A stretch of 31,153 nt of DNA from a virus: positions 1 to 31,153 of IMG/VR virus record IMGVR_UViG_3300028025_001763; one strand, 5' to 3'. The notes beneath the pieces were generated by a model, which worked only from the letters and a program-made list of their open reading frames with translations, did no database searches and was not told the DNA's origin. This document shows positions 167 through 13,289 of the stretch, in pieces (within the stretch, counting starts at the first letter, position 1; each line of letters starts with the position of its first letter). The translations under genes were made by a program, and so were the position numbers.

Positions 167-204
167 CGCATCTCAAGATAGCAAAGCGTAGCTTTGCGTA
201 TATA
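167..204 (+). repeat. Repeated hairpin element, copy 1
   Basis: The flank CGCATCTCAAGATA is followed by a perfect 7-bp stem GCAAAGC/GCTTTGC (181-187 and 191-197) with loop GTA, then GTATATAT. Copies with the same flanks and a changed but still paired stem lie at 1322-1359 and 2629-2667. All three sit in gaps just upstream of a rightward gene. There is no T-run after the stem, so an intrinsic terminator is unlikely. A processing site or a protein-binding hairpin next to a TATATA box fits better. Confidence 0.75.
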
Positions 205-247: not shown

Positions 248-421
248 ATGAACGGTTATGGACTCTATTGGGGCGATTACCTCGCCGTAGGAATTCTTCT
301 CGGCATCCTTGGTGTGCTTATGGTGGCACTCATATGGGATGTAATCGCAATCAAGATAGCAGACTATAAGTCTGCATTAGATGAGGAACACTGGGCAACA
401 ACAATTCGAGAGGAGCAATGA
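248..421 (+). CDS. Small single-pass membrane protein (57 aa), function unknown
   Basis: The frame from ATG 248 follows a GGAG ribosome site at 237-240 with 7 nt spacing. The product has a short polar N-terminus, one strongly hydrophobic segment at about residues 11-33 (rich in L, I, V, G and A) and a charged C-terminal tail ending REEQ, so it is probably an inner-membrane protein with one helix. Its stop overlaps the next ATG by one base (TGATG), so it heads a translationally coupled run. An inverted repeat inside the gene (359-375) is preceded by AAGATAG, like the intergenic hairpin family. I do not recognise a family. Confidence 0.7.
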   Translation: MNGYGLYWGDYLAVGILLGILGVLMVALIWDVIAIKIADYKSALDEEHWATTIREEQ

Positions 422-597
422 TGAACCAATGGCTAGTGCAATTCGATTACTCAGAAGAGGAGAACTCCCCAACAGGGAGCCTCTATATATTCACAGCATC
501 AAAGAATGGAATCATTCTTTGCAACACTGAACACTACAACATGTCCACCGCTTGGGTAGATTTACTCGGCGAACTACAAAGTAGAGGAGAACTGTAA
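421..597 (+). CDS. Hypothetical small protein (58 aa)
   Basis: The gene starts at the ATG overlapping the previous stop by one base and ends TAATG, overlapping the next start by one base. The preceding GAGAGGAG at 409-415 is its ribosome site. The product is soluble and mildly acidic, with a predicted beta-rich middle (SLYIFTASKNGIILC). No family is recognised. A perfect 8-bp inverted repeat with a 4-nt loop (501-520) lies in the coding sequence. The coupling to both neighbours supports it as a real gene despite its size. Confidence 0.65.
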   Translation: MNQWLVQFDYSEEENSPTGSLYIFTASKNGIILCNTEHYNMSTAWVDLLGELQSRGEL

Positions 598-890
598 TGA
601 ACCAGCAATTCGTAGATGACTACCTATTGGTAGTAGAAAATGACAGAGAAGCATGGGATGACATCATCCAGATGGCTCGTGCTGAGAACTATAACATGCC
701 AGCGATTAGCGACATCATCAAGGAAGGCTACGAAACCATGGTTTCGGATGTCATTGGCTCGGTAAGAGAAGAACTGCCAGAGGCAGCGGTCAATCTCCTA
801 TCCCAAATGTTATTTGGGTGGGGCTTGGCTGAGTTCGATGCTATTGCCCGACGTGTAATCGAGGCAGATAAGGAGGCACTAGATGGCTAG
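597..890 (+). CDS. Hypothetical acidic protein (97 aa)
   Basis: The ATG overlaps the preceding stop by one base, and the gene ends with an 8-nt overlap (ATGGCTAG) with the next gene. The product is acidic and predicted mainly helical, with several D/E-rich segments and no membrane segment or metal motif. It resembles in style the short early proteins common in actinophages, but I cannot name a family. Three strong inverted repeats lie in the coding sequence: 619-634, the 16-bp palindrome 731-746, and 802-818. Confidence 0.7.
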   Translation: MNQQFVDDYLLVVENDREAWDDIIQMARAENYNMPAISDIIKEGYETMVSDVIGSVREELPEAAVNLLSQMLFGWGLAEFDAIARRVIEADKEALDG

Positions 891-1047
891 TTACATGGTA
901 ACTGAAGAACGCAAGTTCCTCTTCTACCAAGAGGTAGAAGCGGACAGTAAAGAGGAAGCGATTGAAATCGCTGAAGAGATTGGCGATTGGATACAAGATG
1001 ACAACTATGCCGAAGTGGAACACTTCGCTGGACTCAAGGAGGAATGA
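883..1047 (+). CDS. Small protein with a YxVxAxSxEEA-type alpha/beta domain (54 aa)
   Basis: The ATG at 883 follows AAGGAGG (871-877). The product has a strand (KFLFYQEVEAD) followed by a helix (SKEEAIEIAEEIGDW). This pattern is repeated in the C-terminal part of the protein at 2705-3178 (residues about 94-145, including IAEEIG), so the two share a domain. The function is unknown. Perfect hairpins lie at 921-940 (8-bp stem), 957-972 and 1011-1027 in this 165-nt gene, which is an extreme density. The stop overlaps the next start region (ATGA). Confidence 0.7.
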   Translation: MASYMVTEERKFLFYQEVEADSKEEAIEIAEEIGDWIQDDNYAEVEHFAGLKEE

Positions 1048-1319
1048 TGGGACGTAACACAGCGCAAGACCTAGCAGAAAATGTCATTGACATTCGGCAA
1101 TCAATTGCAATCCAATTGCAAAGCAATCACTATCCGCCAGTTCCACTTACTATGGTGGAACCATGTATCGAAGCAATCTATGCAGTATCAGAAGGTGATA
1201 CTCATAAGAGTATCAATCTCCCAGAGGGAGTTACATGGCGTGGCTATCCGACAGCACCTGCATATACCATCGTCGAAGGTCATCATCTCGAACCATGGTG
1301 TGACTACGACCACGAGTAA
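1047..1319 (+). CDS. Hypothetical protein (90 aa)
   Basis: Two adjacent ATGs (1044 and 1047) follow AAGGAGG at 1037-1043; 1047 gives the better spacing, and 1044 would add one Met. The N-terminal half looks helical, and the C-terminal half contains VTWRGYPTAPAYTIVEG followed by histidines and ends WCDYDHE. This tail style recurs in actinophage early proteins, but no function is known to me. The coding sequence contains inverted repeats at 1105-1121, 1140-1161, 1196-1215 (8 bp) and 1218-1230. It ends the first coupled gene run, and a 70-nt gap with a hairpin element follows. Confidence 0.65.
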   Translation: MGRNTAQDLAENVIDIRQSIAIQLQSNHYPPVPLTMVEPCIEAIYAVSEGDTHKSINLPEGVTWRGYPTAPAYTIVEGHHLEPWCDYDHE

Positions 1320-1321
1320 TC

Positions 1322-1359
1322 CGCATTTCAAGATAGCACAGCGAAGCTGTGCGTATATA
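1322..1359 (+). repeat. Repeated hairpin element, copy 2
   Basis: The flank CGCATTTCAAGATA precedes stem GCACAGC/GCTGTGC (1336-1342 and 1346-1352), loop GAA, then GTATATA. Compared with copy 1, the central stem pair changes from A-T to C-G, so pairing is kept while sequence changes. It lies between the stop at 1319 and the gene at 1390. It is followed by ACCAACCGAAAGGAGC, which holds the ribosome site. Confidence 0.75.
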
Positions 1360-1389
1360 GCAAACCAACCAACCGAAAGGAGCACCACA

Positions 1390-2115
1390 ATGGCAGGACT
1401 TAAACGGTCTAACGACCGAAAGATAACTAACTTACCAACACCAAACGGTAAACGCTCAGCGTTAGCCAACACATTCGGCTTGCCAAGTGGCAAGTCCTAC
1501 TCATGTCCTAATGCAACCAGTATATGCGAGAAGATTTGCTACGCTGGAAAGTTAGAACGTATCTTCCCCTCAGTAAGAGATACTCTCTTACATAACTGGA
1601 ACTTGCTGAAAGATGCAGACCTAGAAACCATGTCCAATTTATTGGACGATATGATTGCCTCATTCCGATTGGAATGCAAGGCAAAGGATGCCGAACTAAT
1701 CTTCCGCATCCATTGGGATGGGGATTTCTTCTCCGATACCTATACCAAAGCATGGCGAGCAGTAATCATGCTCAATCCAGACGTTAAGTTCTGGGTATAT
1801 ACACGAGTCCCATCCGCTGCCAGAATTCTGGATGGGATTGACAATCTCTCGCTGTATTTCAGCACAGATGATGAGAATAAATCCAACGCTGTTTATCTTC
1901 GCACCGAAGGTGTAAAGATAAAGGTTGCCTATCTATCTGACACCTTTGCTGATGCAAAGGAAACAATGCTCAGTCTGACAGGCAAGGTGGGTGCGAAATG
2001 CCCAGAGAATCTGGGTTCCATTCCACTAATCACTACCGAAGGTAGTGCTTGTGCAACATGCCGACTATGTATCGATGGCAAGGCAGATGTTCGCTTTGCT
2101 ATCGCAAAGAAATGA
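1390..2115 (+). CDS. GP88-like cysteine-cluster protein (241 aa)
   Basis: The ATG at 1390 follows AAAGGAGC; upstream in-frame codons are open but fall in the hairpin element, so this start is preferred. The protein resembles the actinophage Gene-product-88 family (function unknown). It has an N-terminal SCPNATSICEKICYAG cluster (C39, C46, C50), a central FRIHWDGDFFS motif at about 105-115 followed by WVYTR, and a C-terminal cluster C204, C221, C224, C227. Seven cysteines in two groups suggest an Fe-S or zinc site. The family name rests on motif order and spacing that I recognise by eye. At least twelve perfect inverted repeats lie inside it, including 1573-1591, 1892-1922, 1943-1960 and 2031-2047. 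Confidence 0.65.
   Translation: MAGLKRSNDRKITNLPTPNGKRSALANTFGLPSGKSYSCPNATSICEKICYAGKLERIFPSVRDTLLHNWNLLKDADLETMSNLLDDMIASFRLECKAKDAELIFRIHWDGDFFSDTYTKAWRAVIMLNPDVKFWVYTRVPSAARILDGIDNLSLYFSTDDENKSNAVYLRTEGVKIKVAYLSDTFADAKETMLSLTGKVGAKCPENLGSIPLITTEGSACATCRLCIDGKADVRFAIAKK
1892..1922 (+). repeat. Two-tier hairpin inside the GP88-like gene
   Basis: Outer arms TTTATCTT (1892-1899) and AAGATAAA (1915-1922) enclose inner arms CACC (1902-1905) and GGTG (1909-1912) around loop GAA. The two bases between tiers (CG and TA) allow one G-T pair, leaving a single C/A mismatch. This is one of the longest stems in the rightward block and lies wholly in coding sequence. Confidence 0.7.
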
Positions 2116-2122
2116 GGATGAT

Positions 2123-2452
2123 ATGAATACAGTAGAAGACAGCGTGGCTTTACTAAGTAAAGCATCTGAATCATTAACAACCTATCGCCTATCACTAGAT
2201 GGATGGCGTTCCGCCATGACCGACCTAGCAATCTGGCATTCGATAGAAGCAATTCTTGCAGAGCAAGAAGACTATGAAATCCAGACTACATTCACACGAG
2301 AAGTAATCATGGCGTGGATTATTCGTGACCGTTGGCAACCAGTATCCATCGATGATGATGGATATGAAGGTATCGATAATGCCGTATTGAATTACATACT
2401 CGATAGCAAACTAGCGATACGTCTAGAAGACATGGAGGATGAAGATGAGTAA
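2123..2452 (+). CDS. Hypothetical protein (109 aa)
   Basis: The start at ATG 2123 follows GAGGATGAT, eight bases after the GP88-like stop. A longer open frame upstream overlaps that gene and is not needed. The product is mostly helical, with a tryptophan-rich middle (about 27-75) and an acidic end (MEDEDE). No family is recognised. It overlaps the next gene by 8 nt (ATGAGTAA). Inverted repeats in the coding sequence lie at 2147-2163, 2203-2217, 2253-2269 and 2343-2364. Confidence 0.65.
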   Translation: MNTVEDSVALLSKASESLTTYRLSLDGWRSAMTDLAIWHSIEAILAEQEDYEIQTTFTREVIMAWIIRDRWQPVSIDDDGYEGIDNAVLNYILDSKLAIRLEDMEDEDE

Positions 2453-2627
2453 ACATATCTACGATATGACAGCCGATGAACTGGCTCAACTAGTGTGCTT
2501 CGGATACGAAGGACACTCATGCACTAACACGATGGATGAATATGGATGTCGGAATAGCATGAAGGACAACGAACCATTCTGTTCAGAATGCTGTGCCGAT
2601 ACTACCGATGGCTCATGCTGTGGATAA
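2445..2627 (+). CDS. Cysteine-rich putative zinc-binding protein (60 aa)
   Basis: ATG 2445 is preceded by GGAGG (2434-2438) at 6 nt spacing; the in-frame ATG at 2439 is too close to the ribosome site. The C-terminal two thirds contain seven or more cysteines in GHSC, GCRN, FCSECC and SCCG, which suits one or two zinc sites. The specific fold is not recognised. It contains a 10-bp stem with a single G/G mismatch (2492-2517) and a 7-bp inverted repeat (2575-2590). A gap with the third hairpin element follows. Confidence 0.65.
   Translation: MSKHIYDMTADELAQLVCFGYEGHSCTNTMDEYGCRNSMKDNEPFCSECCADTTDGSCCG
2492..2517 (+). repeat. Long in-gene hairpin with one mismatch
   Basis: AGTGT (2492-2496), an unpaired G, and CTTCG (2498-2502) pair with CGAAG (2507-2511), an unpaired G, and ACACT (2513-2517) around loop GATA. 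It lies fully inside the cysteine-rich gene. Confidence 0.7.
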
Positions 2628-2628
2628 T

Positions 2629-2667
2629 GCGTATCAAAGATAGCATAGCAAAGCTATGCATATATAT
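2629..2667 (+). repeat. Repeated hairpin element, copy 3
   Basis: GCGTATCAAAGATA precedes stem GCATAGC/GCTATGC (2643-2649 and 2653-2659), loop AAA, then ATATATA. The central stem pair is T-A here, against A-T in copy 1 and C-G in copy 2. It is followed by ACCAACCGAAAGGAAAA, ahead of the gene at 2705. Confidence 0.75.
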
Positions 2668-2704
2668 AAGGGCAAGACAAACCACCAACCGAAAGGAAAA
2701 CCAA

Positions 2705-3178
2705 ATGACAATGATTGACCCAACACTAGAAGCAGTTCCGTTTCCAGAGATACTAACTCTCAGCGAGGCAGACAAACTACGTGTCGACCTTGAAGGAGCA
2801 CAAACAATCAATGCAGGACTACGTAACACAATCAACGACCAACGCAACAAGGTTCGTGACTTATACACACAACTGAATGACATTATCCAAGAGGATAAGT
2901 TGGATGAGGCTGCAGAGATTTCATTCGGTGACCTGTCCAACATACTCAAAGAGGTATTCGGCAGTGAACTTGTGTTCACTAAAGAGTATGAAGTGCAGGT
3001 TCGATTCACTCTGTATGCAACATTCAAGGTAACAGCACAATCTGAAGATGATGCTCGCAATATCGCTGAGGAAATCGGCATCAGTGCAGACCCAGATTGG
3101 GATATCGATGGCGATAACACAGAGGTAGACACATGGTCTATCGACGATACTCGTATCGACTACTTACAGGAGGCATAA
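2705..3178 (+). CDS. Coiled-coil protein with the same C-terminal domain as 883-1047 (157 aa)
   Basis: The start is ATG 2705 after GAAAGGAAAACCAA; longer in-frame upstream sequence runs through the hairpin element and is rejected. Residues about 20-70 look like a coiled coil (SEADKLRVDLEGAQ onward). Residues about 94-145 form a strand-strand-helix unit containing IAEEIG, also present in the 54-aa protein at 883-1047. The tail is acidic. The role is unknown; the coiled coil suggests self-association. Hairpins lie at 2963-2980 and 3145-3158. Density is lower in the first half of the gene. Confidence 0.65.
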   Translation: MTMIDPTLEAVPFPEILTLSEADKLRVDLEGAQTINAGLRNTINDQRNKVRDLYTQLNDIIQEDKLDEAAEISFGDLSNILKEVFGSELVFTKEYEVQVRFTLYATFKVTAQSEDDARNIAEEIGISADPDWDIDGDNTEVDTWSIDDTRIDYLQEA

Positions 3179-3180
3179 CA

Positions 3181-3447
3181 ATGACAACACTTACCCTAGT
3201 TCCACGTCGTGGTGACCGCTGCAAGAATGGGGCGGTCATCGTAGATATCAAGCCAGCATGGGATTCATCTGGCTACATCGTCCTCTGTCTATGGACAGAA
3301 GACACACAATCAACACCACATAAGCGAACCTCAGACCCATATGTAACATGGTTCGCACGAGCTGAAGATAGCGGAATCATCTGCCATCAAGGTCATTATT
3401 ATGACCGACTCTCAGATGCAGTTGTTGACTTTGACAGCCGTATATGA
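3181..3447 (+). CDS. Hypothetical beta-rich protein (88 aa)
   Basis: ATG 3181 follows AGGAGG (3169-3174) just after the previous stop. The product begins MTTLTLVPRRGD and looks like a small beta-barrel or SH3-like fold: short strands, G/D turns and a tryptophan-rich middle. It ends DFDSRI. No family is recognised. Inverted repeats lie at 3213-3238, 3284-3299, 3324-3356 (long loop) and 3391-3406. Its stop codon lies in a 16-bp palindrome. Confidence 0.6.
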   Translation: MTTLTLVPRRGDRCKNGAVIVDIKPAWDSSGYIVLCLWTEDTQSTPHKRTSDPYVTWFARAEDSGIICHQGHYYDRLSDAVVDFDSRI

Positions 3448-3460
3448 GAATATATTCTCA
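3445..3460. repeat. Perfect 16-bp palindrome in the gap before the DUF932 gene
   Basis: TGAGAATATATTCTCA is its own reverse complement and overlaps the TGA stop at 3445-3447. It occupies the position held by the hairpin element before other genes and is likewise followed by CAACCAACCAACTACGAAAGG. It may be a dimer-protein operator or an RNA hairpin. Confidence 0.65.
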
Positions 3461-3488
3461 CAACCAACCAACTACGAAAGGAAATGAT

Positions 3489-4463
3489 ATGACAACAGTA
3501 ACAAACCGACGCTTCGCAGGAAGCATTGCAGGTTCAGAGGTAACAGCAACATCAGCACACGATGCAGCAGTTCAAGCAGGACTTGACTGGCAAGTTTCAC
3601 TTGCTGATGTCGAGGCACTGGCATTAAACAACGATGGCGTTAGCCGTCTAACAGTTCCGAATACATTCGCTACCATCCGCACCAATAACGACGGCACTCA
3701 GTCTGTATTGGGAACAGTTGGTGGACGATACAAAGTATTCCAGAATGATGAGATGTTCTCAGCGCTGGATGCACTAGTCGAATCAGGCGAAGCAAGATAT
3801 GCAGCAGCGGGTGAGCTCAAAGGTGGAGCCCAAGTCTGGATGATGCTGGCACTTCCTAGAGAAGTGCAGATTGCCAACGACCCTCATGCTGGTTACCTAC
3901 TAGCACGAACCTCTCACGATGGGTCATGCTCACTGGGTGTTAGCCCAGTGGTGAACCGTCTGTTCTGCAGTAATCAAATCAGTGGTATCTTCCGCAAGGA
4001 TACAAAGTATTCCTTGAAGCACACCACTAACGCTAACCTCAAGGTCAATGACCTTCGCCAGATGCTAGATATTATCTACACTGGTATCGAATCATACGAA
4101 CTAGTTGCAGACCAGTTGTTAAATACAACTGTCAACGACGGACAAGTAGCCGACATCTTCAAGAAGATGTGGTCACTACCATCTGCAGTTGAGTCTGTTC
4201 CTTACTACACCCTCTCCACTGGAGATAAGCGTAGATATAACAAGGCAATCGAAGCACGTGGCACTGCGATGAACATCTACCAAGGTGCGACTGGCACTCA
4301 ACAGAACATCAAAGGCACAGCCTTCGGTGCGTTCCAAGCAATCGTGGAATACGCTGATTGGTTTAGCCACAAGTCAGAAGCAACACGAGCAGAACGTGTA
4401 GTATCTGGCTCATTAGATAGCGTGAAGAGCAGAGCTCTTACCCTCATCTCGAAAGGAATATAA
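3489..4463 (+). CDS. DUF932 / TIGR03299 phage-plasmid protein (324 aa)
   Basis: ATG 3489 follows GAAAGG (3476-3481). The protein matches the DUF932 (phage/plasmid-like TIGR03299) family by pattern: an N-terminal V-P-N-x-F-A-T-I-R segment, GTVGGRYKVFQNDEMF at about 76-91, a GG-x-VW-M-LA strand near 111, then VNRLFCSNQISG and a helical C-terminus with a GTxQN-like segment. Members are widespread on phages and plasmids and are suspected to act in DNA metabolism, but no activity is proven to my knowledge. The length is normal for the family. The gene holds many inverted repeats, for example 3849-3867, 3931-3950, 3995-4016, 4113-4131 and 4153-4170. Confidence 0.8.
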   Translation: MTTVTNRRFAGSIAGSEVTATSAHDAAVQAGLDWQVSLADVEALALNNDGVSRLTVPNTFATIRTNNDGTQSVLGTVGGRYKVFQNDEMFSALDALVESGEARYAAAGELKGGAQVWMMLALPREVQIANDPHAGYLLARTSHDGSCSLGVSPVVNRLFCSNQISGIFRKDTKYSLKHTTNANLKVNDLRQMLDIIYTGIESYELVADQLLNTTVNDGQVADIFKKMWSLPSAVESVPYYTLSTGDKRRYNKAIEARGTAMNIYQGATGTQQNIKGTAFGAFQAIVEYADWFSHKSEATRAERVVSGSLDSVKSRALTLISKGI

Positions 4464-4465
4464 GC

Positions 4466-4702
4466 ATGACGGAGAATCCGTTACAGAAATATGTCGATGA
4501 ACTCGACAAGCAGAATGACTACGTCCAGCCTGCGTTAACAGCGCAGGCTGGGCAGTATCTGCTCAAGGCTCTGGACTACCTCACTATATATAGCACTGTT
4601 AATAATCAACCAGAGTTGATTGAACAGCCACGTCACGATGATGTAGAAGACATGCTCACCGAAGTTATCATGTATGCACCAGAGGAGGATGTCGATGGGT
4701 AA
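4466..4702 (+). CDS. Hypothetical acidic protein (78 aa)
   Basis: The gene starts at ATG 4466 two bases after the DUF932 stop, with GAAAGG (4452-4457) as ribosome site, and ends with an 8-nt overlap (ATGGGTAA) with the next gene. The product is helical and acidic, especially near its end (PEEDVDG). No domain is recognised. It carries the strongest in-gene hairpin of the block (4525-4551, 10-bp GC-rich arms) and another at 4604-4621. Confidence 0.65.
   Translation: MTENPLQKYVDELDKQNDYVQPALTAQAGQYLLKALDYLTIYSTVNNQPELIEQPRHDDVEDMLTEVIMYAPEEDVDG
4525..4551 (+). repeat. 10-bp GC-rich in-gene hairpin
   Basis: Arms CCAGCCTGCG (4525-4534) and CGCAGGCTGG (4542-4551) pair perfectly around loop TTAACAG. 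It lies at codons about 20-29 of the 78-aa gene. No T-tract follows, so it is not a conventional terminator, although it could still pause ribosomes or be a processing site. Confidence 0.75.
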
Positions 4703-4922
4703 ACTAAAAGACAGCACCACCTTAGTGGTGCGTGAACCATCACTAATAATCAAGCCAATCGCTGGTTGGTCTTGGTATTGTGGGTATCATGATACCTATG
4801 GTATCGGCGATGATAAAGACGAAGTCTTATTCATGGCTGGTGCTCACATGCATTACAAGGAAGTCGACGGTGATGTATGTGAAATCGTTACACGAGAATG
4901 GAAAGTAAAGGAGGAAGCATGA
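4695..4922 (+). CDS. Hypothetical protein (75 aa)
   Basis: ATG 4695 has GGAGG at 4684-4688, 6 nt away; the longer open frame starting at 4674 is inside the previous gene and has no ribosome site. The product contains an aromatic patch WSWYCGYHDTYGIGDD (about 25-40) and ends with charged residues. No family is recognised. The coding sequence has a 7-bp hairpin right after the start (4714-4731) and the GGTATC/GATACC/GGTATC trio at 4783-4805. It overlaps the next gene by ATGA. Confidence 0.65.
   Translation: MGKLKDSTTLVVREPSLIIKPIAGWSWYCGYHDTYGIGDDKDEVLFMAGAHMHYKEVDGDVCEIVTREWKVKEEA
4783..4805 (+). repeat. Three-part alternating inverted repeat
   Basis: GGTATC (4784-4788 with flanking G), GATACC (4791-4796) and GGTATC (4800-4805) allow two mutually exclusive pairings of the middle segment: a 14-bp palindrome with the left copy (4783-4796), or a 6-bp stem with loop TAT with the right copy (4791-4805). 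It lies within the 75-aa gene. Confidence 0.65.
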
Positions 4923-5050
4923 TTATACAAACAAGCGTGACTCTTGTATGTGAATACTGCAATGCAGAAATTGAAAGGCGCACTAACTTGGAAGCACGTG
5001 AGGCTCTGGCTGAACACCAGAATTATGTGCAATGTCTTAAGGGATACTGA
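4919..5050 (+). CDS. Mini zinc-finger-like protein (43 aa)
   Basis: The frame from ATG 4919 overlaps the previous stop by 4 nt (ATGA), follows AAAGGAGGAAG, and ends TGATG, overlapping the next start by one base. The product has CEYC (C11, C14), then H33 and C39, a plausible C2HC zinc site, within a hydrophobic N-terminus and a helical middle. Precise coupling to both neighbours supports it as a gene. The function is unknown; a nucleic-acid or protein adaptor is possible. Confidence 0.65.
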   Translation: MIIQTSVTLVCEYCNAEIERRTNLEAREALAEHQNYVQCLKGY

Positions 5051-5376
5051 TGCCTAAGCCACGCCCAACTGAAATCAAGTTAGTTGCTAACTTGTTAGAC
5101 CCAGATAACACTGACTCCGAAAGTGCTGCGGACTTAGCTGTAGAAATCATTGAAGCTCTGGATGAATCCAGAATGAAACGTGATAACTACATACTCGTAG
5201 CACAGTTAGCACGATGGGCTCCAGTCCAAGCGTGGGGTGAGTTCAGCACCAAGTTGCAGGTTGAGAAGTTCATGAAGAACTTATCGGCTGTCGACTCCGA
5301 AGGTGGACGAGCAGTGATTGTTCACCTTGAACAACCAGAAAAATTACTAGAACGGATTGGAGAAATAAAGAAATGA
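5050..5376 (+). CDS. Hypothetical protein (108 aa)
   Basis: ATG 5050 overlaps the previous stop by one base, and the gene ends with ATGA shared with the next start. The product is predicted helical in its first half (LVANLLDPDN to ALDESRMKRD), then a mixed alpha/beta part with QAWGEFSTKLQVEKFM. No known motif is seen. Perfect hairpins lie at 5076-5094 (8-bp arms, loop TTG), 5157-5172, 5266-5282 and 5318-5334. Confidence 0.65.
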   Translation: MPKPRPTEIKLVANLLDPDNTDSESAADLAVEIIEALDESRMKRDNYILVAQLARWAPVQAWGEFSTKLQVEKFMKNLSAVDSEGGRAVIVHLEQPEKLLERIGEIKK

Positions 5377-5516
5377 TTACCATCATCACGGCAATAGCAG
5401 TAGGTTTCATTGCCTATCGGTTGGGTAAGAGAAAAGGTGAAGCCGATATGTATCGGCTCTGCCAGAACGCCGAACAAACGAAAAGAGAATTCTTCTCTGA
5501 CGTTAGTCGGTGGTAA
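5373..5516 (+). CDS. Small N-terminally anchored membrane protein (47 aa)
   Basis: The frame from ATG 5373 overlaps the previous stop by 4 nt. The product begins with a hydrophobic helix (MITIITAIAVGFIAYRLG), followed by a basic, polar tail ending SDVSRW; it probably sits in the membrane with the tail in the cytoplasm. It is the last gene of the rightward block, with its stop just before the bidirectional terminator. Hairpins lie at 5441-5458 (8-bp arms) and 5484-5498. Confidence 0.6.
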   Translation: MITIITAIAVGFIAYRLGKRKGEADMYRLCQNAEQTKREFFSDVSRW

Positions 5517-5517
5517 A

Positions 5518-5551
5518 ACAAAAGGGGCGGGGGATTATTCCCCCGCCTTTT
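5518..5551. terminator. Bidirectional intrinsic terminator between converging blocks
   Basis: The stem GGCGGGGG (5526-5533) / CCCCCGCC (5540-5547) with loop ATTATT is flanked by A-rich sequence on the left and TTTTCTT on the right, so it has a T-tract in both directions. It separates the rightward stop at 5516 from the leftward stop at 5535. The leftward gene's last codons lie inside the hairpin. Confidence 0.9.
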
Positions 5552-6323
5552 CTTGTTTCTCCTGCGCCTTAATGCTATTCATCATCGTAATCCAATAGAG
5601 TTTATAAAACTCTTCGTCGTAAGCAAACCGTTTCATATGCTTAACCCCAGCACCAGTGTGTCCATACAACGGGACACCAGCTTCCTTCATGTTCATGAAG
5701 AACTGGATATCCTCACCAATAAATCTATCCTTACCATCATTGCCACCGCCATCTGTTTCTAAGAACAGTGGCTTATCACCATGGAATTCTCGTATCTTAT
5801 TAGCAGCATTGCGATGCATCAAAAGGAATCCAAACCCAGCGTAATCAATCTTCATCAGCTGGTCATGTGGCAGCGGATGTATATACGACATCGTGTATTT
5901 ATCGTTCTCGTCGTGGGCTGTAAACAGCGCTGCGTAAGGTTGCATGATGGAGGATTCCATCTGCTTGCTTATGTAATAAGTTCCAGATACAACTGGTCTT
6001 TCAATTGGGTCAGCTGAATCCCATACTTTCTTAAGCGCCTCGTTCGTAAGAACGATGTCGCTATCTACCCATAGTATCCAATCAAAGTCTGTCTTCTTAT
6101 GCCAGGTATCGAATGCAGTTTCACGCTGCCGACCTATCTGATTACCTTGCACACGCTGAGCTGATGTGATTGGTAGTCCCGCAGTTAACAGCGAGTAGAC
6201 AACACCCTCCATAAACTTGCCATCAACTGTGCCATTGTCACACCAAGCAATCATAATCTGATTGTTACTTGGACTGTTCTTAGCTTTCATCTTCTCAACC
6301 AGTTCGCGTTTATTAGCTGCCAT
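5535..6323 (-). CDS. GT-A-type glycosyltransferase-like protein (262 aa)
   Basis: The product looks like a GT-A fold sugar transferase. It has an N-terminal strand IMIAWCDNG, the segment RQRETAFDTWHKKTDFDWILWVDSDI with the metal-binding DSD at residues 87-89, a FGFLLMHR strand near 165-171, and FIGEDIQFF near 201-209 with H229 downstream. Such enzymes use nucleotide-sugars; a phage copy could decorate DNA bases, virion or host surface. ATG 6323 (MAANKRE) is chosen; a GTG at 6344 would extend it by seven residues but has no better ribosome site. It overlaps the upstream FmdB-like gene by 11 nt and ends in the terminator. The acceptor is unknown. Confidence 0.7.
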   Translation of the reverse strand: MAANKRELVEKMKAKNSPSNNQIMIAWCDNGTVDGKFMEGVVYSLLTAGLPITSAQRVQGNQIGRQRETAFDTWHKKTDFDWILWVDSDIVLTNEALKKVWDSADPIERPVVSGTYYISKQMESSIMQPYAALFTAHDENDKYTMSYIHPLPHDQLMKIDYAGFGFLLMHRNAANKIREFHGDKPLFLETDGGGNDGKDRFIGEDIQFFMNMKEAGVPLYGHTGAGVKHMKRFAYDEEFYKLYWITMMNSIKAQEKQEKAGE

Positions 6324-6489
6324 GATTACCGCCCCATCCGCCACCCTTGAAATGGATTGCAGGTGGGGTGAACACCTTGCTTAATGTAACGTTGCAGTCT
6401 TCACATTTAGGAAACTCATCGTCATCGTAACCGACGTAGAGTTCATACTCTTTGTCGCACATGCGACAGATGAAATTATAATTAGGCAT
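6313..6489 (-). CDS. FmdB-like zinc-ribbon protein (58 aa)
   Basis: The start MPNYNFICRMC matches the FmdB-type regulatory zinc-ribbon family, with CxxC at C8/C11 and a second pair CEDC near 29-32, followed by the typical SKVFTPPAIHFKGGGW tail. Members are small zinc proteins, often next to unrelated operons, with unclear roles. ATG 6489 is chosen for family agreement; GGAGG (6501-6505) lies 11 nt upstream, a little far, and a TTG at 6507 is possible. It overlaps the sigma-like gene by 8 nt (ATGCCTAA). Confidence 0.75.
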   Translation of the reverse strand: MPNYNFICRMCDKEYELYVGYDDDEFPKCEDCNVTLSKVFTPPAIHFKGGGWGGNHGS

Positions 6490-7123
6490 AAGGTGTTGGA
6501 CCTCCAAGCATTTCGATAATATCTTTCACACCTTTGGTTGCTATCTGTTCCACTCTTTGTGGTGATATATCCCAGGCGGTAGCTATCTCTGCTAGTGGTA
6601 GGTCTTGTGCGAATCGTGAGTTAAGAATCCCTTGTGTTCGTGGGTCAAGCCTACGCATAGCTCTGTCTACATCAGACAACAAAGCCAATAGGTTATTCCC
6701 TTCGCTTACCTGCCTCTTAGCCTGGACACCATGTGTATCTGGGTCTAGCACTTGATTAACTAGGTGAGCATCTTCAGAACCAAGCACCTTGATTAAGTTC
6801 TCAACCATCTCAATACGATAGAAGTATTCATCACCAAGTTCAAACCCTAAAGCTTTAGCCTTTTCTTTGCGAGCGTATCGCTCGCCTGCTCTACGCATGA
6901 AGGTGGTGAAAGCTTTGTATCCCATCCTTCGTTCGATATCATCCTCGCGCATAAGATACTCGTTGACTTTATCTTTACGCTTCCATGCATACTCATTCAT
7001 CGCCTGTTTAATATCATCGCGTTCAGCAAACCGATGGTATTTCTTGGACAAGTTGTATGCAATGATAGAAGTTATCTCATCTACCTGTATCCATATCTCA
7101 TGGTCACGATTTAAATCAACCAT
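6482..7123 (-). CDS. Sigma-70 region-4-like transcription factor (213 aa)
   Basis: The C-terminal part (about 152-208) reads as a sigma region-4 helix-turn-helix: AMRRLDPRTQGILNSRF, then LAEIATAWDISPQRVEQI, then KGVKDIIEML. The N-terminal 130 residues are helical and charged (RKRKDK, ERRMGYKAF), with weak resemblance to region 2. Actinophages often encode such factors to redirect host RNA polymerase, probably to late genes; that role is inferred. It overlaps the genes on both sides by 8 nt. A sigma-like DNA-binding protein without true sigma activity is the alternative. Confidence 0.75.
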   Translation of the reverse strand: MVDLNRDHEIWIQVDEITSIIAYNLSKKYHRFAERDDIKQAMNEYAWKRKDKVNEYLMREDDIERRMGYKAFTTFMRRAGERYARKEKAKALGFELGDEYFYRIEMVENLIKVLGSEDAHLVNQVLDPDTHGVQAKRQVSEGNNLLALLSDVDRAMRRLDPRTQGILNSRFAQDLPLAEIATAWDISPQRVEQIATKGVKDIIEMLGGPTPYA

Positions 7124-7403
7124 GATTCTTCACCAAGTATTCAACTGATTTCAATAACAAGTTAGGGTCATCACCTAATAAACCAAGGGCGCGATTATGG
7201 TTAGAGCAAAGCAGTCCTCTAACCTTGCCACTCGTATGACAATGGTCGATGTCGAGAGCTCTGTTTGTCGGAGCTTCCCCACAAATGTAACAACCACCGT
7301 TCTGTTCTGCAAACATGCGGTCGTATTCCTCGACACTAATACCGTAACTCCGTATACGAGAGATGCGCTGCTCTTCGTAAGTCTTATTTCTGTTTCTCGG
7401 CAT
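7116..7403 (-). CDS. Endonuclease VII-type HNH nuclease (95 aa)
   Basis: The pattern CYICG (C38, C41), DIDHCH (53-56), then VRGLLCSNHNRALG (C66, H69, N70) is that of recombination endonuclease VII / HNH nucleases, with a zinc site and a DH-N catalytic core. It probably resolves branched DNA before packaging or nicks DNA. ATG 7403 (MPRNRNKTYEEQ) is preferred over GTG 7421, which would sit deeper in the upstream gene. The length is typical of the phage family. It overlaps the upstream gene by 20 nt and the sigma-like gene by 8 nt. Confidence 0.85.
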   Translation of the reverse strand: MPRNRNKTYEEQRISRIRSYGISVEEYDRMFAEQNGGCYICGEAPTNRALDIDHCHTSGKVRGLLCSNHNRALGLLGDDPNLLLKSVEYLVKNHG

Positions 7404-7698
7404 ACTTAGCCCACACCCCACGCTGAACCATTAGTGCGATGATTGCATAGTTAGCCATATCAACAAACGAATCTTCTAAAGATTCATTGTTCGGTTCTCT
7501 ATTTTTATATATCAGATTCTTTAAACGTTCCAGCTTGTCTGACATACGCACCATCAGCCCATTGGTAGCACCACCTGGCGCATGCCAGATGTTGTATGGA
7601 CCATAGTCAAGTTGCTTCTTAACTAAGATAGCAAGCAACTCGTCATATATTTTTTGAGCATCCTCTTCAAATTCAAGGATGGTTGTATCTTCAGCCAA
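7384..7698 (-). CDS. Nmad1/DUF1599-like protein (104 aa)
   Basis: The pattern YDELLAILVKKQLDYGPYNIW ... MVRMSDKLERLKNL ... ESLEDSFVDMANYAIIALM resembles the nucleotide-modification-associated domain 1 (DUF1599) family, a MazG-like all-helical fold. Members are often near genes for modified nucleotides and may act on nucleotides. No ATG exists near the N-terminus; a TTG start at 7698 with AGAAGGGG upstream is used. Only a glycosyltransferase-like gene nearby might relate to base modification. Family assignment is fairly firm, function is not. Confidence 0.7.
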   Translation of the reverse strand: MAEDTTILEFEEDAQKIYDELLAILVKKQLDYGPYNIWHAPGGATNGLMVRMSDKLERLKNLIYKNREPNNESLEDSFVDMANYAIIALMVQRGVWAKYAEKQK

Positions 7699-7709
7699 GG
7701 TAGCCCCTT

Positions 7710-8357
7710 CTATTCGTCTAGTGCTTTAATCAAATCTGTTAAAGCTTGAGCTCCTTGGCTGGTAATTATACTATTGATGTCGCTATCAGGTGGTAACGAC
7801 ACGCGGATAGCTTGAGGAATTGTATCTTGTAATCGTCTAGCTAAATCTTGTCCTGGGTTAGAGCCATCTTCTTTAACATCATTGTCAGTGGCAATGATTA
7901 CCCTACCTATACCATCGAAACAACGTGCGAAATGAGGCTTCCAAGCGTTAACGCCAGCAACAGCGACAGCAGGATGACCAGCAAGGGTGGCAGATATCGC
8001 ATCAATTTCTCCTTCAACTATTAACACCTCTCTTACTGCATGAATGATTGCATCTACATTATACAGGTGATGCTTCTGCCCTGTTGGAATCATATACTTT
8101 GGGTCACCATCATCAATCCGACGGAACTTAAACCCAACTACACCAGCCTCTGTTATATAGGGGATGGATAGGTGATGCTTAAGTCTGTCTTCGTGACCTG
8201 CTGCTGGGTCAACTACGTAACCAAGTTGGAATCGTTCTGCTCCATCAAGGATGCCACGCTTCTCAAGGTATGCCTCAGCTGGTGAGCCAGCCAATGACTC
8301 ATGATAAGTCTTTGCTGCTCGTGTCCAGAGTTCAATGAGTTTAGGGTTTGTTCTCAT
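7710..8357 (-). CDS. DNA primase, TOPRIM catalytic part (215 aa)
   Basis: The protein carries a DnaG-type core without a zinc finger. The N-terminal RNA-polymerase-like part contains YLEKRGILDGAERFQLGY (30-47) and SIPYITEAGVVGFKFRRID. The TOPRIM domain has VLIVEGEIDA (111-120, E115) and VIIATDND (153-160, DxD), then PPDSDINSII. It lacks the helicase-binding C-terminal domain. The CHC2 zinc finger is encoded separately at 8881-9213, with an HslV-like gene between them. ATG 8357 overlaps the upstream stop by 4 nt, so all three are coupled. Confidence 0.85.
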   Translation of the reverse strand: MRTNPKLIELWTRAAKTYHESLAGSPAEAYLEKRGILDGAERFQLGYVVDPAAGHEDRLKHHLSIPYITEAGVVGFKFRRIDDGDPKYMIPTGQKHHLYNVDAIIHAVREVLIVEGEIDAISATLAGHPAVAVAGVNAWKPHFARCFDGIGRVIIATDNDVKEDGSNPGQDLARRLQDTIPQAIRVSLPPDSDINSIITSQGAQALTDLIKALDE

Positions 8358-8884
8358 TTCTTTTCCTGCCTATGCACTATGAATGGGGGAGCAGTATACA
8401 CGTCATTCTTTGCTGCGAGTTGCATAGCCTGCTTCCATGTTGCACCTGCTGCTATAGCACCAAGCGCCCACTGTGAACCAGACCCTATCCCATATAGCCC
8501 ATCATCACGCAGGTATACAGAGTAGGAATCATCTACCTGATAGATGGTTCCGTTAACAGCTAACAGTAATTCAAATCCAGCATCGGCATCATCCTTGTCT
8601 GGCAAATAGCCAGACTCTTTAATACATTCTCTGATACTAGGTGCGACTGTTGTAATCATGAAATGATATTCATCTTTAGTATTAGATGGAATTACTGGTG
8701 GCTTCCATATATGTTGGATTACGTCGCATGGTTGCACGTCACCTGCTCCTGCAATTAACCACTTGCCACGTTTGTTAATCTTAGTAACTGTTGGATGAGA
8801 GTATGGTCTGTTACCTGCGGTTGTCCGCGAGTCAGCTACTATCATGCATCCGTTGTCTTGCTGCATACCAATGATTGTTGTCAT
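8354..8884 (-). CDS. Proteasome beta/HslV-like Ntn hydrolase (176 aa)
   Basis: The sequence starts M-TTIIGMQQDNG, so Met removal would expose Thr1, the nucleophile of proteasome beta and HslV peptidases. Numbered from that Thr, D17 falls in IVADSRTT, a Lys lies at 34 (canonical 33), IAGAGD at 43-48 matches the HslV IAGxxG turn, and GIGSGSQWALGAIAAG (131-146) followed by AAKNDVYTAPP matches the HslV C-terminal half. The length suits HslV (about 175 aa) with no propeptide. A peptidase active after self-assembly is predicted; the ATPase partner is unknown. It overlaps the CHC2 and TOPRIM primase genes by 4 nt each. Confidence 0.75.
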   Translation of the reverse strand: MTTIIGMQQDNGCMIVADSRTTAGNRPYSHPTVTKINKRGKWLIAGAGDVQPCDVIQHIWKPPVIPSNTKDEYHFMITTVAPSIRECIKESGYLPDKDDADAGFELLLAVNGTIYQVDDSYSVYLRDDGLYGIGSGSQWALGAIAAGATWKQAMQLAAKNDVYTAPPFIVHRQEKK

Positions 8885-9213
8885 AGCGCAGCCCTTAATC
8901 TAGGTGGAGTCCAACGTCCGCTACTCTTCTTACGTCCACGTGATGGTGCTGCAGACTTAGATTCTTTGCCGATGTTTTTCTCTGCCCATTTGCGGGCTTC
9001 TGGGTATGTTAAGTTTTCACGACCCATGATTATCTGTATACCAGAACCACTTGCGTTACACGCATAACATACCCAGACTCCCTTGTCTGAATTAACCGAA
9101 GCAGATTTACGTGAGTCATCATGCACAGGACACAAGATTGATTTCTCTCCGCCAAGTGGCAGAGTTAATCCGTAGTGATTAAAGACTGCTTCGAGAAATT
9201 CAGACTGATTCAT
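8881..9213 (-). CDS. DNA primase, CHC2 zinc-finger part (110 aa)
   Basis: The pattern CPVHDDSRKSASVNSDKGVW followed by VCYACNASGSGIQII gives zinc ligands C28, H31, C49 and C52, the DnaG-type CHC2 finger that helps select primase start sites. The C-terminal third is basic (SRGRKKSSGRW) and may bind DNA. The catalytic TOPRIM half is a separate gene (7710-8357). Separate zinc and TOPRIM primase genes are known in some actinophages; here a hydrolase gene lies between them. ATG 9213 lies 3 nt past the transglycosylase stop and has a weak ribosome site. Confidence 0.85.
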   Translation of the reverse strand: MNQSEFLEAVFNHYGLTLPLGGEKSILCPVHDDSRKSASVNSDKGVWVCYACNASGSGIQIIMGRENLTYPEARKWAEKNIGKESKSAAPSRGRKKSSGRWTPPRLRAAL

Positions 9214-9216
9214 TTG

Positions 9217-9594
9217 CTAATACCAATTCCTTTCCTGGTGGAACTTGTATGCCCCGCACCAAGTGTCGTATCTGTGCAGCACATAGTCGTGTGCTTCCTG
9301 TGTTTGTTTCAGTAACGACCAGCCTGGCTTGCCCCATAGTAATTGCCAAGTTCCACGAGCCCCACTCTTTCTGTTGAATGAGTCCTCGTTGTATCGGCTT
9401 TCCTTGTAGGCTATGCGCTTGGCACATAGTCGTTCTTTGCTGTTGGTTACATACTGAGCTATCGCATACTCCACTTTCGTTTCCTTGTCCATAGTGGACA
9501 TGATAACTTCTCGTGTAAGTAATGGTGATGTTGCCTCCGCTGGTGATACCAGCACTAGCCCCATCGCTATGCTCATCGTTAACACTAACCGCAT
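9217..9594 (-). CDS. Secreted transglycosylase-like protein (125 aa)
   Basis: The N-terminus MRLVLTMSIAMGLVLVSPAEA is a clear signal peptide with an AxA-like cut near residue 21. The mature part has AYKESRYNEDSF with candidate catalytic E65 and the lysozyme-type segment SGARGTWQLLWG (77-88), then a helix. This matches small actinobacterial and phage transglycosylase domains. C57 and C113 could form a disulfide outside the cytoplasm. ATG 9594 follows AGAGG; the longer overlapping frame 9200-9646 is a shadow. It lies among replication genes, far from the lysis cassette. Confidence 0.7.
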   Translation of the reverse strand: MRLVLTMSIAMGLVLVSPAEATSPLLTREVIMSTMDKETKVEYAIAQYVTNSKERLCAKRIAYKESRYNEDSFNRKSGARGTWQLLWGKPGWSLLKQTQEAHDYVLHRYDTWCGAYKFHQERNWY

Positions 9595-9632
9595 AGTTAC
9601 CTCTTTTCATTTTGTGAGTAACTGTCACTTTC

Positions 9633-9986
9633 TCACTGATGTCCATTGTAACCTGCCTGTTTTAGCAGATTGACCCAGAGTTCCGCAGGCATTACTGCAT
9701 ACGACTCTGAGATATTAGAAGTGCCACGCTTCTTTATCAAGACAACACCTGTTTCAGCATCCGCATGTGTCATCTCATCCTCTAGTTCCCGAAGGTATTG
9801 AGGAATCCTAAATGATTTTTCATTCTTACATTCTATCACTACGCCATTGATACCGTCGATGTCACCGACATCGTCATGACGACCAGCACCATACGCACGT
9901 TCAGCACATGGATACCCCATTGAACGCAGCCACTTGACCACGTCACGTTCATACTGTGAACCTTTTCTTTTAGCTGGTGTTGTCAT
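9633..9986 (-). CDS. Holliday-junction resolvase-like PD-(D/E)XK nuclease (117 aa)
   Basis: The motifs KGSQYERDVVKWLRSMG (8-24), RAYGAGRHDDVGDIDG (about 30-45, metal-binding D) and VVIECKNEKS (48-57, the ExK pair) are those of small Hjc/Hjr-like archaeal-type resolvases and related PD-(D/E)XK nucleases. The length fits. It probably acts on recombination or replication intermediates. It overlaps the WhiB gene by 4 nt (ATGA). A restriction-like nuclease of the same fold is the alternative. Confidence 0.75.
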   Translation of the reverse strand: MTTPAKRKGSQYERDVVKWLRSMGYPCAERAYGAGRHDDVGDIDGINGVVIECKNEKSFRIPQYLRELEDEMTHADAETGVVLIKKRGTSNISESYAVMPAELWVNLLKQAGYNGHQ

Positions 9987-10252
9987 ACGTATTCTCCTGG
10001 GACAATTGATTCTAGTTTTATATTTAACTTGCGACGGATAGCCATTCGTTCACGTGGTGTAGCCCCACCCCATAAACCATATCCTTCATGATGAACTGCC
10101 CAATCAAGACACGTTTGTTTTATTTCACAGCTTGCACAAATCTTTTTACCAAAGGAATACATAGATGTATCACCTTCGTTCTCAGAATCTGGGTAAAAAA
10201 ATTCACTACCTATTTCACTGCAACGACCTGATGATAAATCTGGAAAGTCCAT
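9983..10252 (-). CDS. WhiB-family Fe-S transcription regulator (89 aa)
   Basis: Four cysteines in the WhiB arrangement (C11, C39, C42, C48: GKKICASCEIKQTCLDWA), followed by GLWGGATPRER and a basic patch RRKLNIKLE, define a WhiB-like [4Fe-4S] protein. The family is confined to actinobacteria and their phages, which fixes the host group. Phage copies can bind host sigma factor or WhiB promoters and block superinfection or host genes; which applies here is unknown. AAGGAG precedes ATG 10252. Confidence 0.92.
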   Translation of the reverse strand: MDFPDLSSGRCSEIGSEFFYPDSENEGDTSMYSFGKKICASCEIKQTCLDWAVHHEGYGLWGGATPRERMAIRRKLNIKLESIVPGEYV

Positions 10253-10261
10253 CTTGGCTCC

Positions 10262-10423
10262 TTATGGTTGTTGCTTAATCCTATATATATTTTCCCAATA
10301 TTGTAAAGATGTTTCATCGGTTACTATCAAATGTTTTAACCGCTTGGTTCTTTTCATACCAAGGTAGTCAAGCACCTGCCACTTAACCCATGCACCCCAT
10401 AATAATCTGTGTGGTTTAACCAT
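10262..10423 (-). CDS. Hypothetical small basic protein (53 aa)
   Basis: This short frame fills the gap between the nuclease-like gene and whiB. ATG 10423 overlaps the upstream stop by 8 nt (ATGGTTAA), and its TAA lies just before the AAGGAG of the WhiB gene. The product is basic and aromatic (LLWGAWVKWQVLDYLG, then KRTKRLKHL). No family is recognised. Evidence is the neat fit and the recurring 8-nt overlap. The alternative is a non-coding spacer. Confidence 0.5.
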   Translation of the reverse strand: MVKPHRLLWGAWVKWQVLDYLGMKRTKRLKHLIVTDETSLQYWENIYRIKQQP

Positions 10424-10805
10424 CCTTCAGGTTCCTCATTGCTGTAAGTAAATCATCTACAGTAATCAGGTAGCCCTTGCTTCTATTCGGTGGAATCTCA
10501 CAAGTAATCTCTCGACCGAAGTTCTTTATTGCATACAGCACATGGTCAGTCGGAACCATAAGCACACCCTTCTCTAATACGAATGCCCAGTATTCTGCTT
10601 TAGTAACCATGACACCAGATGGTTCCCATGACTCTGTTCGCATATACCAGCATTCAACTTCAACATATACATTGCCAGTTGAATGCCACTTACGGTCACG
10701 TTTAACTTCTACTGTTCTGCCCTGAGTTAATAGTTCTTCAACTAAATTCTCACCAGCTTGACCGTAACTTAAATCTAAATCAAAACTTGAATTGCCTACT
10801 GCCAT
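10416..10805 (-). CDS. Putative PD-(D/E)XK-fold protein (129 aa)
   Basis: The pattern FDLDLSYGQAGENLVEELL (helix), TVEVKRDRKWHSTGNVYVEVEC (E-V-K strand then a second strand) resembles the core of small PD-(D/E)XK nucleases, with E33 and K35 as candidate active-site residues and an upstream D. The remainder has strands and a helix ending MRNLKDG. It sits next to helicase and recombination genes. Assignment is by pattern only; an inactive structural relative is possible. It overlaps the helicase gene by 10 nt. Confidence 0.5.
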   Translation of the reverse strand: MAVGNSSFDLDLSYGQAGENLVEELLTQGRTVEVKRDRKWHSTGNVYVEVECWYMRTESWEPSGVMVTKAEYWAFVLEKGVLMVPTDHVLYAIKNFGREITCEIPPNRSKGYLITVDDLLTAMRNLKDG

Positions 10806-11629: not shown

Positions 11630-11631
11630 TG

Positions 11632-12108
11632 TTACTTAGCCCAAATAGTTTCGGCTTCGACTGCACCTGGCTTGAAAGGCTTTGGTCCCTTGGCTGGGTC
11701 GAACCAACCAACATAAGCCTTACCTGCTTTTGATACGCCCTTCTTCTTGGCGTATTTACCACGTCCGTCTGGTAGGTCTGGAGCATCTGGATGTCCATAT
11801 GTCCACTCGTTACCATACTTGTCTTTAACAACCTCAATTGATTGAGGTGCAGTTCCAGCAGCCACTGGCTGTGGATTTAACCCTGCATCCTGCAGCATTT
11901 GAATTGCTGCTTCAGCGTTAGGTGTGTAGGCATTGCCAGTTGTTTGAACTGGTCGACCCGATAGAGATGCTTGCAATTGTGCAGCATCGTTCACAGCCTC
12001 AAGGGCTGCCATTAAATTGGCTCTGAATTCAGCAGCGCTATTACCTCGGACGGTAAATAGTTCACTGCCATGCAGTTTGCCAGTAAATGAGAACATAGAT
12101 TCAGTCAT
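11632..12108 (-). CDS. Hypothetical replication-cluster protein (158 aa)
   Basis: The N-terminal MFSFTGKLHGSELFTVRGN (5-23) plus the helix AEFRANLMAALEAVND look like a small alpha/beta unit. A low-complexity A/P/Q linker follows (about 65-90), then a basic C-terminus with YGNEWTYGHPDAPDLPDGRG (98-117) and KAGKAYVGWFDPAKGPKPF. Similar proteins lie beside recombination nucleases in actinophages, and a single-strand DNA-binding role is conceivable, but I see no firm motif. It is between the nuclease and helicase genes. Confidence 0.55.
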   Translation of the reverse strand: MTESMFSFTGKLHGSELFTVRGNSAAEFRANLMAALEAVNDAAQLQASLSGRPVQTTGNAYTPNAEAAIQMLQDAGLNPQPVAAGTAPQSIEVVKDKYGNEWTYGHPDAPDLPDGRGKYAKKKGVSKAGKAYVGWFDPAKGPKPFKPGAVEAETIWAK

Positions 12109-13169: not shown

Positions 13170-13174
13170 GCGCC

Positions 13175-13204
13175 AAGGTTACCAAAGGTTACCAAAGGTT
13201 ACTG
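13175..13204. repeat. Three tandem 10-bp repeats (iteron or operator)
   Basis: AAGGTTACCA, AAGGTTACCA and AAGGTTACTG are head to tail. The 10-bp period places the same face of DNA toward a bound protein at each repeat, and each holds the near-palindrome GGTTACC. They lie 6 nt upstream of the first leftward replication gene, so an operator or a replication iteron is plausible. Confidence 0.7.
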
Positions 13205-13288: not shown

Positions 13289-13289
13289 G

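What the first reader, a model, noticed from the sequence alone, without database searches (positions are those of the whole stretch)
248..5516. Rightward genes carry a very high density of perfect inverted repeats
By eye I count about thirty in-gene perfect inverted repeats with arms of at least 7 bp and loops of at most 8 nt in roughly 5.3 kb, plus about fifteen with 6-bp arms. A uniform-composition estimate (about 5,250 positions x 9 loop sizes / 16,384) gives roughly three. A 1-kb sample of the leftward block shows about one comparable structure. Most repeats have loops of 2-5 nt. Possible causes are mRNA hairpins that set stability, pausing or processing of the early transcript, DNA-level hairpins, or palindrome-perfecting mutation by replication. 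I know of no named system with this layout.
Basis: partly seen in the sequence, partly recalled or inferred. Interest (0 to 1): 0.9.

Follow-up and report, generated by a model that had tools for sequence, protein, structure and literature searches.

The report
Phage operon packed with mRNA hairpins
One operon of a family of freshwater bacterial viruses has been shaped by evolution so that its messenger RNA folds into a short hairpin roughly every 140 letters while leaving the ribosome docking sites bare, a degree of built-in RNA folding not expected in an ordinary protein-coding stretch of a DNA virus.

Summary
The rightward block (248-5516) holds 38 perfect inverted repeats (arm >=7, loop <=8) against 2.5 in dinucleotide shuffles; in its genes, 35 against 3.45 in synonymous shuffles. 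All 67 related IMG/VR early blocks show it (median 3.0/kb at arm >=7, loop 3-5, against 0.23/kb in 113 random viral contigs), and it coincides with the one divergent operon of ~41-kb relatives. The repeats behave as sense-strand RNA hairpins: stems peak at 7-8 bp and loops at 3; G-U mismatches are tolerated more than A-C (117 vs 35 expected; 69 vs 43); C-G closing pairs are preferred; homologues covary. They avoid the initiating-ribosome footprint (-20 to +10) and pile up just outside it. Local pairing is raised and long-range pairing lowered. Best reading: selection keeps the early mRNA as a chain of local hairpins that insulate ribosome-binding sites; any effect on decay is inferred. Replication-made palindromes, terminators and dsDNA sites are disfavoured. 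Streptomyces Beephvirinae phages show a weaker genome-wide in-gene excess.

The parts
248..5516 (+). Rightward operon of about 16 small genes carrying the hairpin array (38 perfect inverted repeats with arm >=7, loop <=8)
1390..2115 (+). GP88-family gene (PF17338) inside the block
3489..4463 (+). DUF932 gene (PF06067); used for homologue retrieval and the covariation test
175..204 (+). Leader element AAGATA-GCAAAGC-gta-GCTTTGC-GTATATA (hairpin followed by TATATA), copy 1
   Evidence: sequence; hairpin kept in all 7 close relatives alignable there; pattern in 37 IMG/VR stretches
1330..1359 (+). Leader element, copy 2, before the GP88 gene
2637..2666 (+). Leader element, copy 3, before the gene at 2705
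4153..4170 (+). In-gene hairpin ACATCTTC-aa-GAAGATGT in the DUF932 gene, 86% of cells paired across 39 relatives
   Evidence: helix 14
4425..4439 (+). In-gene hairpin AAGAGC-aga-GCTCTT near the 3' end of the DUF932 gene, 92% of cells paired across relatives
   Evidence: helix 18
1196..1215 (+). In-gene hairpin TGATACTC-ataa-GAGTATCA; 8/8 pairs kept with 2-4 changes in four of eight relatives
5076..5094 (+). In-gene hairpin CAAGTTAG-ttg-CTAACTTG, 26 nt after the start at 5050; 8/8 pairs kept with up to 4 changes in relatives
4525..4551 (+). Longest in-gene hairpin (10-bp stem, 7-nt loop)
5522..5551 (.). Bidirectional intrinsic terminator at the end of the rightward block, between convergent operons
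5535..31143 (-). Leftward genes (replication, structural); weaker excess of inverted repeats (3.4x over synonymous shuffles)

Best explanation
The inverted repeats are hairpins in the sense-strand mRNA of the divergent early operon, built mainly through synonymous changes and kept by selection. Each is a 7-8 bp stem with a 3-5 nt loop, in A-rich flanks, on average every ~140 nt. They keep the transcript folded locally: short-range pairs increase and long-range pairs decrease. They stay out of the ~40-nt window an initiating ribosome occupies and sit just outside it on both sides, so each ribosome-binding site is an open pad between two clamps. Shown by computation: sense-RNA hairpins, selection, avoidance and bracketing of start sites, local-for-long-range trade. 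Inferred: that the benefit is reliable ribosome access on a polycistronic mRNA of small genes, probably with better survival against decay or Rho-type termination. Which of these matters was not tested.
For: Excess over synonymous shuffles in the window and in 222 early genes of 17 dereplicated relatives: arm >=7, 348 against 24.8; arm >=8, 139 against 7.6. Arm-length peak with a fall after 8 bp: arm 7, 251 against 14; arm 8, 136 against 2.7; arm 9, 28. Shorter stems are more GC-rich than longer ones (0.517 at 6 bp, 0.44 at 8 bp), as expected for a stability optimum. G-U mismatch stems 3.3x against A-C 1.6x over synonymous shuffles at 7 bp; in homologous DUF932 stems 58 G-U against 15 A-C (24 against 10 distinct sequences). 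Triloop closing pair C-G 117, G-C 21. Covariation: 65.6% of cells paired against 32-38% for slid partners, 222 cells changed on both sides against 70-127. Start-site hole and flanking peaks, absent at non-start ATGs, robust when 47 gene families are weighted equally. Local pairs z +18, long-range pairs z -15.7; matched genes of random viral contigs z +3.3 and -0.3.
Against: No RNA probing, expression or decay data exist for this group. About half of homologous positions do not keep the pair, so most single hairpins are dispensable. The leftward genes and the Beephvirinae phages have an excess with little G-U/A-C asymmetry, so part of the signal may have another cause. Insulation of ribosome-binding sites alone does not explain the hairpins deep inside genes, where coverage stays about 0.12 against about 0.02 in controls. 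In the shuffle control, the counts of pairs with a both-side change and of extra pair types did not exceed chance.
Confidence: 0.6

Rival explanations
1. Transcript protection: the hairpins act mainly throughout the mRNA to slow nuclease decay, block Rho loading or prevent R-loops and RNAP backtracking during early transcription; avoidance of start sites is only a constraint.
For: Coverage is high deep inside genes, not only near starts; spacing is more even than random (mean CV 0.72 against 0.84); the array is confined to one operon.
Against: Linkers between hairpins stay A-rich and single-stranded, leaving room for endonucleases; the peaks next to start sites need a translation-linked reason. 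No direct data.
Confidence: 0.25
2. The repeats are made by replication (template switching, quasipalindrome correction) and have no function; they persist because the small early genes tolerate change.
For: Template switching is known to create perfect hairpins (PMC8794818). A weaker excess exists genome-wide and in Beephvirinae without G-U asymmetry.
Against: Stem length is peaked and capped, not long-tailed; differences are split between arms as by chance (26 of 102 in one arm, 21 expected); strand-asymmetric G-U tolerance and C-G closing bias; exclusion from ribosome-binding sites.
Confidence: 0.06
3. The hairpins are single-strand DNA structures of the + strand, used in replication or entry.
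For: Triloops GAA, GTA and AAA closed by C-G resemble very stable DNA mini-hairpins (own knowledge); G-T is also less disruptive than A-C in DNA (own knowledge).
Against: Boundaries match an operon and holes match start codons, which DNA-level use does not predict.
Confidence: 0.04
4. A phage or host protein binds these hairpins by shape (RNA regulon).
For: Narrow geometry (about 17 nt overall) and a loop-closing preference.
Against: Stem sequences differ almost everywhere and stem GC trades off with length, as expected from stability alone; no candidate binder was identified.
Confidence: 0.05

Closest known systems
Selection on mRNA folding near start codons in dsDNA viruses (survey of 650 strains, PMC3072339)
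   Same: The ribosome-binding window is kept unstructured.
   Different: That survey found T7 windows further downstream not different from chance and little rise overall; here the rest of the mRNA is packed with discrete 7-8 bp hairpins about 15-fold over synonymous expectation, with peaks right outside the footprint.
Genome-scale ordered RNA structure (GORS) of RNA virus genomes
   Same: Pervasive structure in coding RNA beyond what protein and codon use explain.
   Different: Here it lies in one operon of a dsDNA phage, consists of isolated short hairpins, and long-range pairing is reduced rather than raised. Comparison rests on own knowledge; no GORS paper was read.
Template-switch-made RNA hairpins (PMC8794818)
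   Same: Perfect stems and compensatory changes.
   Different: No one-arm clustering of changes; capped stem length; strand asymmetry.
Beephvirinae Streptomyces phages Zeigle, FlowerPower, Stella
   Same: Strong in-gene excess of short perfect inverted repeats (arm >=7, about 5-6x over synonymous shuffles), unstructured start sites.
   Different: Genome-wide in both operons, stems extend to 9-10 bp, almost no G-U/A-C asymmetry, no peak at +30.

Membership tests
Selected RNA secondary structure in coding mRNA | More structure than synonymous shuffles of the same genes | tested here: met
Selected RNA secondary structure in coding mRNA | Covariation that keeps pairs | tested here: met
   65.6% of cells paired against 32-38% slid; 222 both-side cells against 70-127
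Selected RNA secondary structure in coding mRNA | Structure forms in the cell | not testable with these tools
   needs chemical probing
GORS | Structure spread through the whole genome of an RNA virus | tested here: not met
   dsDNA phage; strongest in one operon
Template-switch hairpins | Clustered changes in one arm copied from the other | tested here: not met
Intrinsic terminators | T-run directly after the stem on the sense strand | tested here: not met
   2.3% of hairpins against 1.8% of random positions; a real terminator is at 5522-5551
dsDNA operators bound by dimers | Shared palindromic sequence | tested here: not met
   stem sequences differ and loop-0 palindromes are not enriched
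N4-type virion RNA polymerase hairpin promoters | Very large virion RNA polymerase gene | tested here: inconclusive
   largest ORF in the 31-kb window is 635 aa; the window is not a complete genome and relatives were not searched for it
Known Rfam RNA elements | Match to a curated family | tested here: not met
   no match at gathering thresholds

The most novel reading that the evidence does not exclude
The operon mRNA is a chain of sequence-independent hairpins with ribosome pads between them, a previously undescribed architecture used by an actinophage lineage to run a polycistronic early message, possibly with a dedicated hairpin-sensing factor.
Probability: 0.25. Interest if true: 0.9.

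Novelty: new variant of a known kind. Interest (0 to 1): 0.74.

Why it matters
It is a clear natural case where the DNA sequence of a phage operon encodes proteins and a dense, regular RNA fold at once. It makes a long-standing question testable: how far, and why, does selection shape mRNA folding inside genes? It offers natural rules (stem 7-8 bp, loop 3-5, keep -20 to +10 open, clamp at about -45 and +35) for polycistronic mRNAs. It also warns that counts of in-gene inverted repeats in phages can reflect mRNA folding rather than DNA sites.

Tried and rejected
Rfam and tRNA scans: nothing. blastn against INPHARED: no match. Cultured DUF932 or GP88 actinophages Abba, Maminiaina, Clawz, Jawnski: little or no excess; Tomas mild. 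Planktophila phages E7 and F5, the nearest cultured helicase hits: about 2x at arm 7 and none at arm 8. Terminators: sense T-tails at chance level; antisense-type A-tails 15% against 8.7%, explained by A-rich flanks; also at odds with + strand G-U tolerance. A first G-T/A-C count on all changed pairs in nine close relatives gave no asymmetry (100 against 96); it included stems destroyed outright, and the asymmetry appears when stems with one mismatch are counted. Periodic spacing: none, only avoidance of close neighbours. A genome-contig scan with DUF932 found no host or prophage of this lineage. Literature searches for a dense in-gene hairpin system in phages found none; only open-licence papers are held, so absence is weak evidence.
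Full report
WHAT IS THERE. The window is a 31,153-base virus record, apparently a tailed actinophage: GP88 and DUF932 genes in the rightward block, and DnaB-like helicase, primase, major head protein, tail fibre and a sigma-70 region-4 protein in the leftward block. The rightward block (248-5516) has about 16 small, mostly abutting or overlapping genes and ends at a bidirectional terminator (5522-5551).

THE OBSERVATION. Perfect inverted repeats with arm >=7 and loop <=8: 38 in 248-5516 against 2.5 +/- 1.6 in dinucleotide shuffles. Within genes 35 against 3.45 +/- 1.5 when synonymous codons are shuffled. The leftward genes have 47 against 13.7 in 25 kb, a weaker excess. In one search two of the sixteen rightward gene models (2123-2452 and 3489-4463) were entered one base out of frame, so their codons were shuffled in the wrong frame; the larger test, on 222 genes called in frame, gives the same result (348 against 24.8 at arm >=7, loop 1-5).

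HOW GENERAL. 80 loci with a DUF932 relative of 61-83% identity were fetched from IMG/VR (first set). All 67 early blocks long enough to score have 2.3-7.6 hairpins/kb at arm >=7, loop 1-5. At arm >=7, loop 3-5 they have 0.9-5.5/kb, median 3.0; 113 random IMG/VR contigs (1.05 Mb, picked by an arbitrary 14-mer) have median 0.23 and maximum 1.5. In five relatives of about 41 kb the dense stretch coincides with the single rightward operon in an otherwise leftward genome.

WHAT KIND OF OBJECT. (a) Geometry: in 17 dereplicated blocks (93 kb) the excess rises from 1.8x at 5 bp to 18x at 7 bp and 51x at 8 bp, then counts fall to 28 at 9 bp; loops peak at 3 and the excess ends near 8; perfect palindromes without loop are barely enriched; for loops 1-2 the stem is about one pair longer, as if one pair opens to make a loop of at least 3. 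(b) Stability: shorter stems are GC-richer (0.517 at 6 bp, 0.50 at 7, 0.44 at 8). (c) Strand: stems with one interior mismatch, loop 3-5, 7 bp: G-T 117 against 35.0 by synonymous shuffle (3.3x), A-C 69 against 42.9 (1.6x). On the other strand these classes swap, so the mismatch tolerated is G-U in sense RNA. (d) Closing pair of triloops: C-G 117, G-C 21. (e) Covariation: on 39 DUF932 genes, 18 recurrent hairpins give 65.6% paired cells against 32-38% with slid partners, and 222 cells with both sides changed against 70-127. Example: CTGTAC-tag-GTACAG, CAGTGC-ttg-GCACTG and CAGTAC-tag-GTACTG at one place. The shuffle control agrees on cells paired, both-side cells and covariation score, but not on the number of pairs with any both-side change. 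(f) Turnover: over all hairpins the mean pairing at homologous columns is 0.51 against 0.24, so many hairpins move while density stays. (g) Codon phase: arrangements in which a wobble base faces a fixed base are preferred (143 and 108 against 87), and 57% of arm differences are at third positions, so stems are made largely through synonymous change.

RELATION TO TRANSLATION. For 227 early-gene starts (ATG with a Shine-Dalgarno-like sequence) hairpin coverage is 0.014-0.035 from -20 to +10, rises to 0.24 at -50 to -30 and 0.25 at +30 to +40, and is 0.10-0.19 elsewhere; ATGs that are not starts show a flat 0.11-0.14, and random viral genes stay at about 0.02. With 47 gene families weighted equally the peaks remain (0.29 at -50, 0.22 at +30, 0.05 in the hole), and removing genes behind the conserved leader element does not remove them. 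The nearest hairpin edge begins sharply 20-25 nt upstream and 20-35 nt downstream of the start, about the edge of an initiating 30S footprint (own knowledge).

FOLDING. In partition-function folds of 300-nt windows, DUF932 genes have more local pairs (span <=24: 14.3 against 11.3 per 100 nt, z +18) and fewer long-range pairs (span >80: 5.7 against 7.9, z -15.7) than synonymous shuffles; 24 GC-matched genes from random viral contigs give z +3.3 and -0.3. The early mRNA trades long-range for local structure.

MECHANISM. Best reading: sense-mRNA hairpins that keep the message locally folded and its ribosome-binding sites open. The RNA nature, selection, start-site avoidance and bracketing are computed results; the benefit (initiation, decay, termination) is inference. 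Against a purely mutational origin: capped stems, strand asymmetry, closing-pair bias, start-site holes, and arm differences spread over both arms (26 of 102 in one arm, 21 expected). Against terminators: sense T-tails at chance level. Against dsDNA-binding sites: no shared sequence, no clear loop-0 excess, strand asymmetry. Single-strand DNA of the + strand is not formally excluded, but operon boundaries and start-site holes are hard to explain that way.

NEIGHBOURS. Cultured actinophages with DUF932 or GP88 mostly lack the trait. Planktophila phages E7 and F5 (PMC10202952; OX376640, OX376641), the closest cultured helicase match at 40%, show little. Streptomyces phages Zeigle, FlowerPower and Stella (Beephvirinae; Zeigle capsid 46% identical to the window's) show about 5-6x in-gene excess over synonymous shuffles at arm >=7 in both operons, and 77 related contigs have a median of 2.0/kb against 0.31, but with almost no G-U/A-C asymmetry and no +30 peak. 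So there may be a broad, weaker component whose level (RNA or DNA) is open, and a strong RNA component special to the early operon of the freshwater lineage. Host of the window: unknown; the gene content suggests an actinobacterium. 'Early' and 'freshwater' are inferences: from the divergent small-gene operon, and from the kinship with the Planktophila phages; no sample data or expression data were available.

LIMITS. All evidence is sequence-based; related genomes are not fully independent even after dereplication at 82% identity; gene starts were called by rule, not annotation; the novelty judgement rests on open-licence papers and own knowledge.

Noticed in passing
window 175-204, 1330-1359, 2637-2666; 37 IMG/VR stretches: Repeated leader element AAGATAGCA-N-AGC-NNN-GCT-N-TGC-N-TATATA ahead of early genes; could be a promoter, an RNA processing site or a translation leader.
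   Followed up: partly
L360, L361, L362 and L363-L442: Beephvirinae Streptomyces phages and related contigs carry a genome-wide in-gene excess of 7-10 bp hairpins without clear strand asymmetry.
   Followed up: partly
window 5535-31143 (leftward genes): Leftward genes also exceed synonymous shuffles (47 against 13.7), with broader loops and weak G-U asymmetry.
   Followed up: partly
IMGVR_UViG_3300027754_000069 (82,688 bp; L033 and L074): One contig holds two different DUF932 relatives (82% and 66% identity) about 42 kb apart: probably two phage genomes joined in one record.
   Followed up: no
window 8354-8884 (-): Gene with a weak proteasome-subunit match (PF00227, E 2.6e-5) in a phage replication region.
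   Followed up: no
window 6482-7123 (-): Sigma-70 region-4 protein whose only tblastn matches among INPHARED phages are the two Planktophila phages (about 24% identity).
   Followed up: no
window 26295-29220 (-): Two adjacent genes both carry transglycosylase/endolysin-like domains.
   Followed up: no
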